A program made the translations under genes and the position numbers. Positions 1 through 3,896 of a stretch of DNA of 5,805 bases are shown in pieces. The stretch lies in NCBI GenBank assembly GCA_002849045.2, contig NCRO01000091.1, positions 1 through 5,805 of the forward strand. Direction: 5' to 3'. The notes beneath the pieces were generated by a model. The model was not told the DNA's origin. It searched no databases and saw only the letters and a program-made list of their open reading frames with translations. Within the stretch, counting starts at the first letter, position 1. Each line of letters begins with the position of its first letter. Source of the stretch: Candidatus Sediminicultor secundus. GTDB taxonomy: Bacteria; Atribacterota; JS1; SB-45; 34-128.

Positions 1-19
1 AGATGTGTATAAGAGCCAG
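1..19 (+). other. Residual tagmentation adapter (Tn5 mosaic end), not genomic
   Basis: The first 19 bases read AGATGTGTATAAGAGCCAG. The Tn5 19-base mosaic end present in Nextera-type adapters is AGATGTGTATAAGAGACAG, so 18 of 19 positions match, with an A-to-C difference at position 16. The match starts exactly at base 1, as expected for an untrimmed adapter at a contig end. The single mismatch would explain why trimming missed it. The genomic sequence probably begins at about base 20. Confidence 0.93.
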
Positions 20-27
20 AATAATAA

Positions 28-49
28 CAATGATAAGAACCTCCTTTTT
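28..49 (-). promoter_or_regulatory. Possible ribosome binding site and TTG start of a truncated minus-strand gene
   Basis: Read on the minus strand, 49-40 is AAAAAGGAGG, a full Shine-Dalgarno sequence. Nine bases later comes a TTG codon (30-28), followed by TTA TTA TTC before the adapter begins. Spacing and strength suit translation initiation, and the direction matches the hepT-mntA genes. Only about four codons remain, so the product is unknown and the site could be chance. Confidence 0.27.
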
Positions 50-99
50 GGTTAGCCCGTTAAATTAGTCGTTAGTAAATAGTGAATAGTCGTTAGCAC
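48..99. repeat. Degenerate octamer pair followed by five heptamer tandem units
   Basis: Positions 48-63 hold two 8-base units, TTGGTTAG and CCCGTTAA. Positions 65-99 then divide into five 7-base units: TTAGTCG, TTAGTAA, ATAGTGA, ATAGTCG, TTAGCAC. The 13-base string TAGTCGTTAGTAA at 66-78 recurs exactly at 3736-3748, and TTGGTTAG recurs twice at 3684-3699. No coding or RNA-gene signal overlaps it. Confidence 0.7.
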
Positions 100-125
100 A
101 AATACAAGTTTTCACGGTAGGACAG

Positions 126-157
126 CCAGTTACCCGGTTAACCAGTTTGCCGATTAA
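126..157. repeat. Four degenerate octamer tandem units, CCRRTTNN family
   Basis: The stretch divides exactly into CCAGTTAC, CCGGTTAA, CCAGTTTG and CCGATTAA. The same pattern appears at 3784-3823. It lies in the 204-base stretch downstream of hepT. Apart from the adapter, the possible ribosome binding site and the repeats, I see no gene in that stretch. Confidence 0.7.
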
Positions 158-204
158 CGCAGCAACGCGGCGTACTGTGTTTGATTAAATAGGTACAAAA
201 AAAT

Positions 205-630
205 CTATTTTCTTTGAGATAACCATTTTTTAATATAATCCATAAACTTATAGAATTGATCCATCTTTTGAAGATTTTTATATACTTCATCCCAGTCAAT
301 ATCCAAATATTCGTGAATTAAAATATTTCTAAAACCAGTAATAGGAGCAAATTTTTGAGCAAAATCATACGGTAAAATACTTTCTTCCCCTAACCTTATA
401 ATAGAGCCATAATAATCTTTAGGTTTTTCTAATTCATCTAAGGAAATTATCCTGTTGGCAATATCAATACAGGATTGAATAGCAACTTCTAAATTTCTTT
501 CTACGATATCTTGTAAATACTCATCTTGATAGAATTCTTTTTTACTTTTTTCTTTAAAAGGCTCTAATTTTATTAAGCATTTCTTCAGTCTTTCTAAGCG
601 CTGTTCTATACCGCTGAATTCTGTCTCCAT
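205..630 (-). CDS. hepT: HepT-like HEPN-domain ribonuclease toxin (DUF86)
   Basis: A 141-residue all-helical protein of the HepT/DUF86 family, close to the usual family length. It carries the HEPN catalytic motif RX4HXY as R101, H106 and Y108, inside a segment reading GFRNILIHEYLDIDWDEVY that is very typical of the family. Characterised HepT proteins are RNases that act as toxins and are silenced when a partner MNT enzyme AMPylates the motif tyrosine, here Y108. The start at 630 is supported by a strong Shine-Dalgarno sequence (AAAGGAG, about six bases upstream). The partner gene mntA lies immediately upstream on the same strand and overlaps the first 77 bases. All three motif residues are present, so it should be active. 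Toxicity here is inferred from the family, not shown. Confidence 0.93.
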   Translation of the reverse strand: METEFSGIEQRLERLKKCLIKLEPFKEKSKKEFYQDEYLQDIVERNLEVAIQSCIDIANRIISLDELEKPKDYYGSIIRLGEESILPYDFAQKFAPITGFRNILIHEYLDIDWDEVYKNLQKMDQFYKFMDYIKKWLSQRK

Positions 631-1033
631 GTCTCTCTCCTTTAGATTTGACTTTAAGTATATCTTTTTTTTGTGCCCGTAAAACAGGTAAATAATCGAA
701 ATATTGACTTAAGGTATCTGCTTCAAACTCAGTCCTAACTATAGAATTTTTCTGAAAAATAACTTTTCCTGTAGCAACAACTTTATATTTTAATTCTATA
801 GGAGCATCATTAAGAATAACCAGGTCCACTTGTTTATTGTCCAAAATATTAATTAATTTGTTTTTTAATCTATATTTAAATGGAAAAGATATTTTTTGTG
901 ACAAAAAAACTGCAAAATCATAATCACTTAGCGGGCCTATTTTCCCCTTTAATTGAGAGCCAAAAATATAAGTTAATAAGATATTCTTTTCTTCTGCGAC
1001 TATTTTTTTTATATCATTAAATTTATCAAACAT
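554..1033 (-). CDS. mntA: MntA-like minimal nucleotidyltransferase antitoxin
   Basis: A 159-residue MNT-fold nucleotidyltransferase. The signature GSX10DXD is intact (G25, S26, D37, D39), and a third likely metal-binding aspartate is D70 in the strand QVDLVIL. Known MntA enzymes transfer AMP from ATP to the tyrosine of the HepT RX4HXY motif and so neutralise the toxin; the adjacent hepT has that motif. I chose the ATG at 1033, which has AGAGGA 12 bases upstream. The frame stays open to a TTG at 1072, but that would add 13 residues drawn partly from heptamer repeat sequence. The C-terminus is odd: roughly the last 25 residues (about 135-159) are read from DNA that also encodes the hepT N-terminus in another frame. 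This makes it longer than the roughly 100-140 residues common in the family. Confidence 0.9.
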   Translation of the reverse strand: MFDKFNDIKKIVAEEKNILLTYIFGSQLKGKIGPLSDYDFAVFLSQKISFPFKYRLKNKLINILDNKQVDLVILNDAPIELKYKVVATGKVIFQKNSIVRTEFEADTLSQYFDYLPVLRAQKKDILKVKSKGERHGDRIQRYRTALRKTEEMLNKIRAF

Positions 1034-1069
1034 ATTCTTTTTATATCCTCTAACTATTGAATAATCTCG

Positions 1070-1090
1070 CAACTTGTAACTTGCAACCAG
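1070..1090. repeat. Three heptamer units between the TPR gene and mntA
   Basis: The units are CAACTTG, TAACTTG and CAACCAG. On the minus strand this is a GTTGCAA-type heptamer, resembling the GGTGCAA units at 3757-3777. It fills part of the 60-base gap between the two minus-strand genes. I see no terminator hairpin in that gap, so transcription could run through. Confidence 0.55.
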
Positions 1091-1093
1091 TTT

Positions 1094-2260
1094 TTATTTA
1101 TTTAATTTCTTTAATTTTTTTTCCGCTTCTTGGGCAAACCCCGATTGAGGGGCAAGTTCAATCACTCGGGAGAGGCATTCTCGGGCTTTCTCTTTTTCCC
1201 CTATTTTATCATAAGATAATCCCAAATAATAGGCAACTTCTACATTTTGGGGAGACATCTCTTCCGCTTTTTCCAAATATTCTTTAGCTTGGGAGTATTT
1301 CTTTTTCTCAAAATGTATATATCCTATCCTGGTGTTAAGGTAAATAATAATTCCTGTATTCCCTGCTGGAGAAGAGCTTGTTGTTAAATCTAAAGCTTTT
1401 AAATAATATTCTAAAGCTTTATTGTAATCATTGATAAAGGGGACTATGCTTCTTACTTCATAGATATAGCCTAATCTGAGATAACTATTTAAATCTTCCG
1501 GATTATTTTTAATAATTTGTTCATATTGAGGTATGACTTGCTCCGCGAACTTATTAGCTTTTCGGTATAAACTGTAGGCTTTTAAAATATTTTTGTTATT
1601 ATATTCTATTATGCCTTTTTGAAGATAACATTGCCCCAGGTAATAGTAACTCTCTGTATGGTTTTCGTCCAATTCAATTGATTTTTCAAATTCAATAATA
1701 GCTTTATCGTATTCTCCCTTGCCAAAATAAGACATTCCTATTCTAAAAGGAGTCTGGGGCTGGGGCTTGGGTTGAACCTTGGCGGTAGGTTCATTTTTTT
1801 CTTTAATAAATCCGGATACGATAACTTCTAACCGAGGATTGACCGGGTCATTAGATTCTACATAAATCCGCTTGGTGAACCACCCTATCATATCCAGTGA
1901 ATTAACGGTAATTTTTAGTTCACCCACTTCTCCCGGATTAAGTTCTTTAGTAGAAATTAGAGGGTCAATACAGGATTCACAGCTAACCTTAACCCATTTG
2001 ATAATTAAAATCTCATCTCCGCTATTTTCGAATGTAAAGATATGTGTAGGAAGCTCATCAGGAGTAATTTCTCCAAAATCCCAGGAATCTTCCGGAAAGT
2101 AAATAGAGGGACCCGAACTGGCTAGTGCGATAGCCGTAGCGCCAAACAAAGGTAAAGCTTGAACCATAAGAATAAAGAGCAAAGAAAAAGCGATACACAT
2201 TATTAAAGAAAATATTCTATTTTTTTTGCTTGCATTATTTTTCATATACCTATTCGTCAT
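1094..2260 (-). CDS. Exported DUF1573-domain protein with TPR repeats
   Basis: A 388-residue protein with a recognisable domain order. Residues 1-47 form an export signal with a long hydrophobic stretch (about 16-47) and a possible signal peptidase site after A47 (ALA-SS); an uncleaved membrane anchor is the alternative. Residues about 56-153 match DUF1573, an immunoglobulin-like fold, shown by DFGEITPDE, the FTFENSGDEIL strand, the LNPGEVGEL turn and a closing IVSGFIK. A Pro-rich linker (about 154-171) leads to TPR repeats at roughly 172-205, 206-250, 257-291, 307-340 and 341-374, with typical phrases such as KGEYDKAIIEFEKSIEL. The cysteine motif is SCESC (C94, C97), where the family often has SCGC. 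The protein is probably periplasmic or surface-exposed and a scaffold for protein contacts; its specific role is unknown. The ATG at 2260 follows AGAAGGA closely. An ATG at 2245 is the alternative start. Confidence 0.88.
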   Translation of the reverse strand: MTNRYMKNNASKKNRIFSLIMCIAFSLLFILMVQALPLFGATAIALASSGPSIYFPEDSWDFGEITPDELPTHIFTFENSGDEILIIKWVKVSCESCIDPLISTKELNPGEVGELKITVNSLDMIGWFTKRIYVESNDPVNPRLEVIVSGFIKEKNEPTAKVQPKPQPQTPFRIGMSYFGKGEYDKAIIEFEKSIELDENHTESYYYLGQCYLQKGIIEYNNKNILKAYSLYRKANKFAEQVIPQYEQIIKNNPEDLNSYLRLGYIYEVRSIVPFINDYNKALEYYLKALDLTTSSSPAGNTGIIIYLNTRIGYIHFEKKKYSQAKEYLEKAEEMSPQNVEVAYYLGLSYDKIGEKEKARECLSRVIELAPQSGFAQEAEKKLKKLNK

Positions 2261-2295
2261 ATTTCCTTCTTTTTCTCTAATTTCTAATCTTTTAA

Positions 2296-2325
2296 ATTAT
2301 ATAATATACAACCCACTTTTGGCAA
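2296..2325 (-). promoter_or_regulatory. Sigma70-type promoter for the DUF1573-TPR gene
   Basis: On the minus strand a -35 box TTGCCA (2325-2320) and a perfect -10 box TATAAT (2301-2296) are separated by 18 bases. The predicted transcript would start near 2289, leaving a short leader of about 28 bases before the ATG at 2260. The same promoter may also serve mntA and hepT, because no terminator is visible between those genes. Confidence 0.7.
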
Positions 2326-2340
2326 ATCCATAAAAATAAA

Positions 2341-2437
2341 GTATCGAGTATATAGTATCGGGTATCGAGTTAAGAAAGAGAAAGAAAAGATAGAAAAAAA
2401 TAGCGGGTAGTGTAAAGTGTATAGCATATAGTTGCGG
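2341..2437. repeat. Two blocks of degenerate heptamer tandem repeats
   Basis: Positions 2341-2368 divide exactly into GTATCGA, GTATATA, GTATCGG and GTATCGA. Positions 2403-2437 divide into GCGGGTA, GTGTAAA, GTGTATA, GCATATA and GTTGCGG. An A/G-rich stretch (about 2369-2400) separates them. The blocks lie between the two divergent promoters. A 61-codon minus-strand reading frame that spans them lacks support as a gene. Confidence 0.68.
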
Positions 2438-2467
2438 GCAGGAGATGTAAGTAAAGTAGAAAAAACC

Positions 2468-2506
2468 AAATGACAAATCTGGTGCCAGGCACCAAATTTG
2501 TCATTT
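2468..2506. repeat. 39-base near-perfect inverted repeat with GGTGCC-A-GGCACC core
   Basis: Two 19-base arms (2468-2486 and 2488-2506) flank a single central A at 2487 and pair at 18 of 19 positions. The only mismatch is C2479 with A2495. The arms read from AAATGACAAAT into the GGTGCC core. A T-rich run follows on the plus side, so it resembles an intrinsic terminator. However, no plus-strand gene lies upstream in the window, and the element sits upstream of the next gene's promoter. A REP- or MITE-like dispersed palindrome is therefore more likely than a working terminator. Confidence 0.85.
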
Positions 2507-2514
2507 TTTAATTT

Positions 2515-2541
2515 TTGTAAAGAATGAAAATATGATATACT
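2515..2541 (+). promoter_or_regulatory. Probable promoter for the lptF/lptG-like gene
   Basis: A -10 box TATACT (2536-2541) is preceded by TG one base earlier (2533-2534), making an extended -10 element. A -35-like TTGTAA lies at 2515-2520, with a short 15-base spacer; extended -10 promoters can tolerate a weak -35. Transcription would start near 2548, giving a leader of about 20 bases. The 39-base hairpin ends nine bases before the -35 box. Confidence 0.5.
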
Positions 2542-2565
2542 TAGAAAAATGTTTTAAGTAGGAGA

Positions 2566-3681
2566 ATGATGACTGTAAATATATCAATCAGGAAGTTTCC
2601 GCGGCCTAAGGTATTAGACCGCTATATTGTAAAGGAAGTAATGAGCTTTGTGGCTCTGGCTGTTGCCGCCCTAACCATTATGTTAATCATGCAAACTCTC
2701 TTTGAGTTAATGGATATGTTAATTAATAAGAGAGTGGCCTGGCCCTATATTGTCAAGTTATTAGCCTATCGCCTTCCGGCATTTCTGGTAGTAACCTTCC
2801 CTATCTCTTTGCTGGCTTCCAGCGAACTGGCTATTGGCCGCCTATCCACAGATGGTGAGATAACCGCCATGAGAGCAGGAGGGATAAGCCTGCGCCGAAT
2901 AATGTTCCCTTTTTTGACTGCTGCTTTGGCCATCAGTATTTTGGCTTTTGTGATTAATGATTATATCGTTCCCGAGGCCAACCATATCTCACAAAATATT
3001 ATCCGGGAGATTGTATTAAAGAAAGGCCCACCCAATATTAGGCGAAACGTATTTTTCCGTGATGCTGAAAACCGTTATTTCTATATCAATCGATTAGACG
3101 AAAAGAATATGATTATGCAAGACATTATGATCTATGAAATGACTCGGGAAAAATTTCCCCGAATGATAACCGCCAAGTCAGGTAAGTGGGTAATCGATAC
3201 CTGGAAACTGGAGAATGGGACTATATATAATTATGATAAAGATGGCAAAATCACCTATGAAATGAGTTTTGCAAATATGGATATAATTGTCAAGGAAGAC
3301 CTGCAAAAATTCTTTAAAAATCAGAGAACCCCCCAAGAGATGAGTAGCAAGGAATTAAAACAACAGATAGATATTTTAGAACAGGTGGGGGCAGATACTA
3401 AAAATTTCAAAGTAGACCTCTATATGAAATATTCTATCCCCTTTAGCGGGTTAATCTTTGTGCTGCTGGGAGTGCCTTTGGGCCTGCGGGTAAAACGGGG
3501 GAGCAAAGCTACCGGAGTGATCCTCAGCATTGTCCTGGTTTTACTTTATTACATCCTACTTTCCACTACCAGATCCATGGGAAGAGGAGATATGTTAACG
3601 CCAGTTCTGGCGGCCTGGGCACCTAACATGATTTTTGGTATTTTAGGGGTGCTTATTATGCTTGGATCGGAGAAAAAGTGA
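2566..3681 (+). CDS. LptF/LptG-family LPS export permease (YjgP/YjgQ)
   Basis: A complete 371-residue inner-membrane permease of the YjgP/YjgQ family, the usual family size. Six membrane segments can be seen, near residues 24-48, 62-86, 111-133, 290-308, 315-335 and 344-366. A periplasmic jelly-roll domain fills about 134-285. Family hallmarks include GRLSTDGEITAMRAGGISL (91-109) after the second segment and LLGVPLGLRVKRG (300-312). In the known system LptF and LptG pair with the ATPase LptB to extract LPS and push it along LptC, LptA and LptD. Sequence alone does not tell LptF from LptG, and no second permease is in the window. AGGAG at 2560-2564 is one base before the ATG at 2566 and four before the ATG at 2569, so 2569 may be the true start. 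The lptD-like gene follows on the same strand, which fits the assignment. Confidence 0.93.
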   Translation: MMTVNISIRKFPRPKVLDRYIVKEVMSFVALAVAALTIMLIMQTLFELMDMLINKRVAWPYIVKLLAYRLPAFLVVTFPISLLASSELAIGRLSTDGEITAMRAGGISLRRIMFPFLTAALAISILAFVINDYIVPEANHISQNIIREIVLKKGPPNIRRNVFFRDAENRYFYINRLDEKNMIMQDIMIYEMTREKFPRMITAKSGKWVIDTWKLENGTIYNYDKDGKITYEMSFANMDIIVKEDLQKFFKNQRTPQEMSSKELKQQIDILEQVGADTKNFKVDLYMKYSIPFSGLIFVLLGVPLGLRVKRGSKATGVILSIVLVLLYYILLSTTRSMGRGDMLTPVLAAWAPNMIFGILGVLIMLGSEKK

Positions 3682-3683
3682 AT

Positions 3684-3707
3684 TTGGTTAGTTGGTTAGC
3701 TAGTTAG
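3684..3707. repeat. Three octamer tandem units just after the permease gene
   Basis: The units are TTGGTTAG, TTGGTTAG and CTAGTTAG, beginning two bases after the stop codon. TTGGTTAN is the reverse complement of the NTAACCAA phase of the octamer array at 3784-3823, so the same family occurs in both orientations within this gap. Confidence 0.65.
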
Positions 3708-3735
3708 GAAGTAAAGTACAAAACGCAGGATAAAA

Positions 3736-3777
3736 TAGTCGTTAGTAAGAAATACAGGTGCAAGGTGCAAGATGCAA
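3736..3777. repeat. Heptamer repeats, including a 13-base copy of the left-end array
   Basis: TAGTCGTTAGTAA at 3736-3748 is identical to 66-78, about 3.7 kb away. It is followed by three tandem heptamers, GGTGCAA, GGTGCAA and GATGCAA (3757-3777). There is no coding signal. Confidence 0.65.
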
Positions 3778-3783
3778 GTTAAT

Positions 3784-3823
3784 ACAATTAACCAATTCTC
3801 CGATTGACCAATTAACCAATTAA
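3784..3823. repeat. Five octamer tandem units, CCRRTTNN family
   Basis: The stretch divides exactly into ACAATTAA, CCAATTCT, CCGATTGA, CCAATTAA and CCAATTAA. The pattern, including alternating CCAR and CCGR units, matches the array at 126-157. Confidence 0.7.
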
Positions 3824-3826
3824 AGA

Positions 3827-3896
3827 TAGTTTTTAGTCATTAGTTTTTGGTTTTTAGATAAAGAAAATCGATTTTCAGTTATCAGCTTATAGTTTT
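3827..3896. repeat. Two YAGTYNN-type heptamer blocks upstream of the lptD-like gene
   Basis: Positions 3827-3854 divide into TAGTTTT, TAGTCAT, TAGTTTT and TGGTTTT. Positions 3876-3896 divide into CAGTTAT, CAGCTTA and TAGTTTT. A 14-base palindrome lies between the blocks. I could not find a convincing -35/-10 promoter for the lptD-like gene in this gap. Confidence 0.6.
3863..3876. repeat. Perfect 14-base palindrome GAAAATCGATTTTC
   Basis: Each half is the exact reverse complement of the other, with no spacer. It lies 37 bases before the lptD-like start codon. A dimeric regulator site is possible, but AT-rich DNA makes short palindromes common and no known operator is recognised. Confidence 0.4.

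What the first reader, a model, noticed from the sequence alone, without database searches (positions are those of the whole stretch)
48..3896. Intergenic DNA built from degenerate 7-base and 8-base tandem repeats
Nearly every gap between genes divides cleanly into tandem units of exactly 7 or 8 bases. Octamers of the CCRRTTNN family occur at 126-157 and 3784-3823, and in the opposite orientation at 3684-3707. Heptamers occur at 65-99, 1070-1090, 2341-2368, 2403-2437, 3757-3777, 3827-3854 and 3876-3896. A 13-base string is shared exactly between 66-78 and 3736-3748. Short tandemly repeated heptamers are known from cyanobacteria, but here two unit lengths and several sequence families alternate within one gap. 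This suggests a generating process such as slippage, repeat spread or a repeat-linked enzyme, rather than selection on single sites.
Basis: seen in the sequence. Interest (0 to 1): 0.72.

Follow-up and report, generated by a model that had tools for sequence, protein, structure and literature searches.

The report
Direction-obeying heptamer arrays between genes
In one group of uncultured bacteria, much of the DNA between genes is built from short 7- and 8-letter repeat modules that nearly always point away from the nearest gene and differ from species to species, which fits neither ordinary copying slippage nor simple mirror-ended jumping DNA.

Summary
The repeats are real. In the window's gaps, period 7 (z 7.6) and period 8 (z 3.2) exceed dinucleotide shuffles; coding DNA shows neither. 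The window belongs to Atribacterota (LptF relatives 87-93% identical). In 1.1 Mb from six relatives the gaps show the same periods, as TAGTNNN, CGTATNN, AGCGTNN and other heptamers and CCRRTTNR octamers. The window alone does not show this cleanly. The outermost arrays of one gap agree in family little more than by chance (25 of 75, 23.2 expected), so most are not terminal inverted repeats. Neighbouring units are no more often identical than random draws (66 of 280), so slippage is not the main maker. Orthologous gaps carry different arrays. Best reading: a fast-turnover mosaic of directional end modules copied between gaps. No enzyme is shown; Y1 transposases are commoner in array-rich genomes (13 of 14 against 11 of 24), but that is one clade. 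A new variant of known intergenic heptamer repeats and mosaic elements.

The parts
66..99 (+). TAGTNNN heptamer array (TAGTCGTTAGTAAATAGTGAATAGTCGTTAGC); points away from whatever gene lies to the left (an anti-sense ribosome-binding-site-like CCTCC is at 40-44)
   Evidence: 66-90; sequence; not listed by TRF
126..158 (+). CCRRTTNN octamer array, near the middle of its gap
1069..1090 (-). GCAAGTT-type heptamers; on the - strand they point away from the 3' end of the TPR gene
   Evidence: period 7
2341..2370 (+). GTATCNN heptamer array pointing away from the TPR gene start; lies in an insertion shared with L003 and not seen in L001, L002, L004 and L007
   Evidence: comparison by eye
2402..2437 (+). 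weak AG(C/T)GNNN heptamers in the same insertion
   Evidence: 2402-2422; not listed by TRF
3684..3707 (+). TTGGTTAG octamers 2 bp after the lptF stop codon
   Evidence: other arrays stand here in orthologs
3736..3748 (+). short TAGTCGTTAGTAA array
   Evidence: sequence
3756..3778 (+). GGTGCAA/GATGCAA heptamers
3784..3823 (+). CCRATTNN octamer array in mid-gap
3827..3896 (+). degenerate TAGTNNN and CAGTTNN heptamers pointing toward the next gene, against the orientation rule
   Evidence: 3827-3844; rest read

Best explanation
The gaps are a fast-turnover mosaic of directional end modules. The commonest module is about 35 bp: terminus TWAAT, then up to five TAGT cores separated by words such as CGT and GAA. 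Modules sit at the edge of functional DNA (2 or 4 bp after a stop codon, about 20 bp before a start, or beside a tRNA gene) and read into the gap. Shown here: the two periods, the orientation, near-independence of the two ends of a gap, no slippage signature in unit order, and different mosaics in orthologous gaps. Inferred: modules are copied from gap to gap, most likely when a gap is broken and repaired on another gap's array of the same polarity, so that arrays act as interchangeable homology adaptors; now and then a whole bracket (array, core, inverted array) is copied as one piece. Selection against damage to genes sets the outer limit. No enzyme is identified.
For: Orientation 307 of 325 within 60 bp of a gene for five families, also 6 of 6 arrays beside tRNA genes (five tRNAs, not all independent), and in a family-free 8-mer test. 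Outermost families on the two sides agree in 25 of 75 gaps, 23.2 expected within genomes, and paired arms are no more alike than unpaired ones (0.82 against 0.84). Random unit order. Orthologous junctions carry different families. Of 140 matches to a whole 138-bp bracket only 2 are full length (40 candidates scored per genome).
Against: Over all 531 gaps, left and right arrays of one family co-occur more than independence gives (TAGTNNN 28 against 13.9, octamers 13 against 2.6, CGTATNN 9 against 3.3); part of this is because 301 gaps have no outward array of the eight families, but it also fits paired ends. Whole brackets do occur at two sites. Without the 60-bp limit the rule is weaker: TAGTNNN 189 out, 38 in; AGTAATN 23/12; divergent gaps 18/12. 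No repair intermediate, donor or strain-level event was seen.
Confidence: 0.42

Rival explanations
1. Non-autonomous mobile elements (MITE- or REP-like) whose two ends are directional arrays of unlike sequence, moved as whole units by a transposase, perhaps a Y1 (REP-associated) one.
For: A 138-bp bracket with termini AATTAGT and ACTAATT stands at two unrelated sites of G003, 87% identical, inverted, unrelated flanks; 7 same-genome alignments (6 gap pairs) run from outer array edge to outer array edge. Same-family co-occurrence above independence. Y1 transposase domain in 13 of 14 array-rich genomes, 10 of 12 with few matches, 11 of 24 with none.
Against: Most matches to that bracket cover one arm only (138 of 140). 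Outermost families are near independent and arms of a pair no more alike than strangers. No target-site duplication was established. The Y1 association is confounded by descent, as the array-rich genomes form one clade.
Confidence: 0.28
2. Synthesis at broken ends: both 3' ends of a break in a gap are extended with 7- or 8-base units by a templated or patterned polymerase (telomere-like in logic), then joined.
For: Predicts reading away from each gene edge on both sides whatever the gene strand, unlike families on the two sides, short arrays and turnover, as seen.
Against: Reverse transcriptase domain in only 3 of the 14 array-rich genomes; Ku over the cut-off in 0 of 50. Several unit families would need several templates. 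Arrays begin at a fixed terminus and complete brackets are copied.
Confidence: 0.12
3. Selected function in the transcript: stop codons in all frames after genes, G-poor leaders before them.
For: TAGTNNN holds TAG once per 7 bases; 30 of 57 arrays at 3' ends start 2 or 4 bp after the stop codon.
Against: Families without stop codons, such as CGTATNN (60 of 63) and AGCGTNN (31 of 31), obey the same polarity; arrays beside tRNA genes do too; orthologs do not keep an array at a given gene.
Confidence: 0.1
4. Replication slippage expanding chance seeds, followed by point mutation.
For: Tandem structure with fixed periods; two 91%-alike copies in G004 differ by one whole heptamer.
Against: Neighbouring units are no more often identical than random draws. 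408 of 507 spacer words are exactly CGT, GAA, ATT or ATA, words 1-3 changes apart. Length cap at five cores. Slippage gives no polarity.
Confidence: 0.04

Closest known systems
TAACTGA direct repeats of Beggiatoaceae, some Cyanobacteria and Bacteroidetes (MacGregor 2015, PMC4679880; abstract, sections 7 and 8, and passages seen)
   Same: Short tandem heptamers, mostly intergenic; 147 of 170 sets in one genome point toward a start codon, most often ending 1 nt before it, and one set in F. [quoted passage not shown] Both agree with TCAGTTA pointing away from the gene, as the CAGTTNN family does here (16 of 19).
   Different: One unit there, with related heptamers rarely repeated; here at least eight families and two periods. 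The paper suggests translational control. Its Microcystis sample (6 forward, 8 reverse, 8 between stop codons) does not clearly show the rule.
Cyanobacterial heptanucleotide repeats (STRR) and Xanthomonas/Nostoc GGGAATC-type repeats (PMC4692102, passages seen)
   Same: Heptamer units, intergenic, degenerate (GGGANTN), differing between related species.
   Different: G-rich and studied as quadruplexes; the passages seen give no orientation rule at both gene ends and no octamer companion.
REP / bacterial interspersed mosaic elements (PMC3733652 abstract and outline seen; PMC2817692 search listing only)
   Same: Small modules in alternating orientation forming mosaic extragenic DNA by the hundred; a Y1 transposase link is possible here too.
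   Different: REP modules are palindromes; the arrays here are not.
MITEs (PMC10969869 search listing only)
   Same: Small intergenic elements, some whole copies at unrelated sites.
   Different: No matching inverted ends in most gaps and no established target duplication.

Membership tests
Intergenic tandem heptamer repeats (STRR / TAACTGA kind) | Tandem 7-base units in many intergenic regions | tested here: met
   76 segments in G001 against 4.4 in shuffles, 65 in G004 against 1.8 (5 shuffles)
Intergenic tandem heptamer repeats (STRR / TAACTGA kind) | One favoured unit, relatives rarely repeated (TAACTGA case) | tested here: not met
   Many families and a second period of 8
REP / BIME | Modules are palindromes | tested here: not met
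   TAGTNNN, CGTATNN and AGCGTNN arrays are not self-complementary (sequence); separate palindromes of GTAG type lie inside gaps
REP / BIME | Modules in opposite orientations within extragenic mosaics | tested here: met
REP / BIME | Associated Y1 (RAYT) transposase | tested here: inconclusive
   Domain in 13 of 14 array-rich against 11 of 24 array-free genomes, confounded by clade; no link to the arrays shown
MITE | Terminal inverted repeats | tested here: not met
   Families near independent and arms unrelated within gaps; one 138-bp element has 7-bp matching termini; same-family excess over all gaps
MITE | Whole copies at unrelated sites | tested here: met
   7 same-genome alignments, 6 gap pairs
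MITE | Target-site duplication | tested here: inconclusive
   AATT stands at both ends of one copy but not of the other
Slippage-made simple repeats | Excess of identical neighbouring units | tested here: not met
   66 of 280, expected 66; 4 of 58, expected 3.7

The most novel reading that the evidence does not exclude
A directional process, telomere-like in logic, rebuilds broken intergenic DNA by adding 7- or 8-base units from each surviving gene edge into the gap, so that much of the space between genes in this clade is newly synthesised filler that turns over between species.
Probability: 0.12. Interest if true: 0.93.

Novelty: new variant of a known kind. Interest (0 to 1): 0.62.

Why it matters
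Intergenic heptamer repeats are known from several phyla without an agreed mechanism. An orientation rule tied to gene edges, near-independent ends and random unit order are quantitative constraints that disfavour the usual answers and can be tested in cyanobacteria and Beggiatoaceae, where close strains exist. If the process is repair-driven or enzymatic, it would be a new way in which bacterial non-coding DNA is made.

Tried and rejected
Slippage as main maker: rejected on unit order and length cap. Terminal inverted repeats as a general account: disfavoured; kept as part of a rival because whole brackets occur and same-family pairs exceed independence over all gaps. Reverse transcriptase and Ku: no fit. 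Y1 transposase: I first took it as unspecific; on recount it is commoner in array-rich genomes (13 of 14 against 11 of 24), so it stays open and the MITE/REP rival was raised from 0.25 to 0.28. Absence in draft genomes is weak evidence. Translation-level selection: weakened by stop-free families and tRNA edges. Viral or plasmid source: an exact 25-mer has no match in viral contigs, and a 33-bp consensus and six TAACTGA copies match nothing in the plasmid collection (BLAST's low-complexity filter may have hidden them). Test on a cyanobacterial plasmid: record not held. Matches mostly begin at the ends of the query; I do not use that as proof of a boundary, since the query was cut there; the boundary rests.

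Limits. Gene calls are greedy longest ORFs of 80 aa or more. Gaps under 60 or over 900 bp or without two called neighbours were left out, and 3 of 62 TAGTNNN arrays were unclassified. In the first sample 3 TAGTNNN and 5 octamer arrays lay in called ORFs. Families were defined after seeing part of the data; the 8-mer test is free of that. Contigs were partly picked from match lists, so densities are not unbiased. Gaps of related genomes are not fully independent. The comparisons by eye are named as such.

No paper on such repeats in Atribacterota turned up in one search (Atribacter + tandem repeat + intergenic: 0 papers), which covers open-licence PMC papers only.
Full report
What was checked. 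The window (5805 bp) carries a HepT gene and a MntA-like nucleotidyltransferase gene, a DUF1573/TPR gene, an LptF/LptG permease gene and a long open frame that runs past the window end. No tRNA and no Rfam family at gathering score. In the four gaps together the share of bases equal to the base 7 positions on is 0.410 (expected 0.288, z 7.6), and 8 positions on 0.340 (z 3.2); coding DNA shows neither.

Where it comes from. LptF relatives at 87-93% identity lie in Candidatus Atribacteria genomes (L001-L004, L007; L005 79%, L006 77%). The window's own genome is not held, so relatives were sampled: 315 kb of G001, 419 kb of G004, 226 kb of G006, 94 kb of G007, 24 kb of G003 and 18 kb of G002 (sums). 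Part of the contigs were picked from match lists, so densities are biased upward; orientation is not affected by that.

The two periods. In a 315-kb sample of G001, gaps hold 76 period-7 and 65 period-8 segments against 4.4 and 3.0 in five shuffles; the other periods from 4 to 13 give 3-15 segments (shuffle means 2.2-6.6), and the multiples 14 and 16 give 41 and 38. In 74 kb of G004 period 7 gives 65 against 1.8 and period 8 gives 5 against 1.0. Of gaps of 60 bp or more, 78 of 162 (G001) and 29 of 40 (G004) hold at least one such segment. Over 50 genomes of the phylum, three TAGT cores 7 bp apart occur 60 or more times in 14 genomes, 1-40 times in 12 and never in 24; the reversed pattern occurs 0-7 times. 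Three CCRRTTNR cores occur 20 or more times in 12 genomes, all among those 14, 1-5 times in 6, never in 32; reversed pattern 0-10.

The orientation rule. Call an array outward when it reads away from the nearest gene. In the first sample 57 of 59 classifiable TAGTNNN arrays were outward (30 of 31 at 3' ends, 27 of 28 at 5' ends) and 54 of 64 octamer arrays. In 531 gaps, within 60 bp of a gene: TAGTNNN 144 out, 8 in; CGTATNN 60, 3; AGCGTNN 31, 0; CCRRTTNR 56, 7; the AGTCAGG family 16, 0, together 307 of 325; by arrangement 131/9, 150/5, 14/1 and 12/3 for --, ++, +- and -+. Without the distance limit the numbers are 189/38, 93/19, 48/5, 92/24 and 31/4, and AGTAATN 23/12, CAGTTNN 16/3, GCAAGNT 6/2; divergent gaps then give only 18/12. 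A family-free test agrees: array 8-mers are strongly polar (TCGTTAGT 194/26, GTGAATAG 145/10, AGCGTATA 69/6), A/T-rich ones such as TTAAAAAA (33/30) are not. Of 14 arrays whose nearest feature is one of 49 tRNA genes, 11 are outward, and 6 of 6 within 60 bp (all at 3' ends, five tRNAs, some orthologous); at tRNA 5' ends arrays lie 72-179 bp off. In G004 a TAGTNNN array follows 16S rRNA and an inverted one precedes the next tRNA (read). In the window itself I count seven arrays that obey and four that are central or against the rule, by eye; the rule rests on the relatives.

The two ends of a gap. In 75 gaps with an outward array within 80 bp on both sides, the outermost families agree in 25; 20.6 expected from the totals, 23.2 when right sides are permuted within genomes (p 0.34). 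In 16 gaps with TAGTNNN on both sides the arms are 0.82 alike, against 0.84 for arms of different gaps. Against this, over all 531 gaps the same family occurs on both sides more than independence gives (28 against 13.9 for TAGTNNN, 13 against 2.6 for octamers, 9 against 3.3 for CGTATNN). Part of that reflects the 301 gaps without any outward array, but a share of true pairs is not excluded.

Unit order. 507 TAGTNNN spacer words are CGT (194), GAA (140), ATT (40), ATA (34) and rarer ones; neighbours are identical in 66 of 280 cases, expected 66. 408 words are exactly one of the four main words, 91 are one base off. Arrays with four words peak at CGT-GAA-GAA-CGT (34 of 50 at each position; 18 complete arrays). 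Only 2 of 227 arrays exceed five cores. Octamer neighbours are identical in 4 of 58 cases (3.7 expected), yet core position 4 is the same in 168 of 174 neighbouring pairs while position 3 mixes. Before the first TAGT the consensus is TWAAT, fading beyond position -6 (n = 121). Of 57 arrays at 3' ends, 19 start 2 bp and 11 start 4 bp after the stop codon.

Turnover. Directly after the lptF stop codon the window has TTGGTTAG octamers, L001 and L007 CCRATTNN octamers, L003 AATTGGCT followed by TAGTNNN, L004 and L006 TAGTNNN, L005 none. Upstream of lptF the window and L003 share an insertion not seen in L001, L002, L004 and L007; inside it the array words differ (GTATCGA against CGTATCT) while about 80 bp beside it is nearly the same (by eye). 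Over 24 kb of G001 and its syntenic contigs, ribosome-binding leaders are mostly kept and interiors are different mosaics in each genome; gaps of 17-48 bp mostly show no array by eye, though a 34-bp gap of G004 holds an octamer pair (output cut in part).

Whole brackets and arms. Seven same-genome alignments of 90 bp or more (six gap pairs) run from outer array edge to outer array edge in both copies. The best is 138 bp, 87% identical, inverted, with unrelated flanks. That sequence has 140 matches in eight genomes (40 candidates scored per genome): two are full length, 138 cover about half or less. Two 246-bp stretches of G004, 91% identical, differ by one heptamer in an array. An ordinary-looking MITE without arrays lives in these gaps too.

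Reading. Directional modules are placed at each edge of functional DNA and exchanged between gaps, sometimes with the core between them. I favour copying during repair of gaps, arrays of equal polarity serving as adaptors; a MITE- or REP-like element with unlike ends and synthesis at broken ends are the main rivals. No enzyme is shown: reverse transcriptase domain in 10 of 50 genomes and 3 of the 14 array-rich ones, Ku over the cut-off in 0 of 50, Y1 transposase in 34 of 50, namely 13 of 14 array-rich, 10 of 12 with few matches and 11 of 24 with none, an association that common descent may explain.

Relation to print. MacGregor (PMC4679880; abstract, sections 7 and 8, passages) describes TAACTGA repeats, 147 of 170 sets toward a start codon; this and one set after a stop codon in F. 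litoralis agree with the outward rule, while the Microcystis sample there is mixed. Of PMC4692102 and PMC6749651 I saw passages, of PMC3733652 abstract and outline, of the other papers named only listings. No passage I saw states an orientation rule at both gene ends. Searches.

Noticed in passing
window 1-19: The window begins with AGATGTGTATAAGAGCCAG, one base off the Nextera transposase end AGATGTGTATAAGAGACAG (recalled), probably adapter left at a contig end.
   Followed up: no
window 2468-2507; L001-L005 and L007 upstream of lptF: A hairpin with a constant GTGCC(A/T)GGCAC core and arms that are rewritten between species yet stay complementary (by eye): a covarying palindrome beside the arrays.
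   Followed up: partly
window 205-1033; L001 7942-8660: A HepT and nucleotidyltransferase gene pair in the window; L001 has what looks like a HepT remnant between arrays in the same neighbourhood (by eye).
   Followed up: no
gaps of G001, G004, G006 and G007: GTAG-type palindromes (GTAGGGGC...GCCCCTAC) in inverted pairs, and a MITE of about 230 bp with ends like ATTACAACCCAAAAAGT...CTTTTTGGG(A/G)A.
   Followed up: partly
octamer arrays of the sampled genomes: Within one octamer array core position 4 is fixed (A or G; 168 of 174 neighbouring pairs) while position 3 and the spacer vary freely; unexplained.
   Followed up: partly
G004:C3:24463-25007: An apparently exact tandem duplication of about 160 bp that includes a TAGTNNN array.
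   Followed up: no
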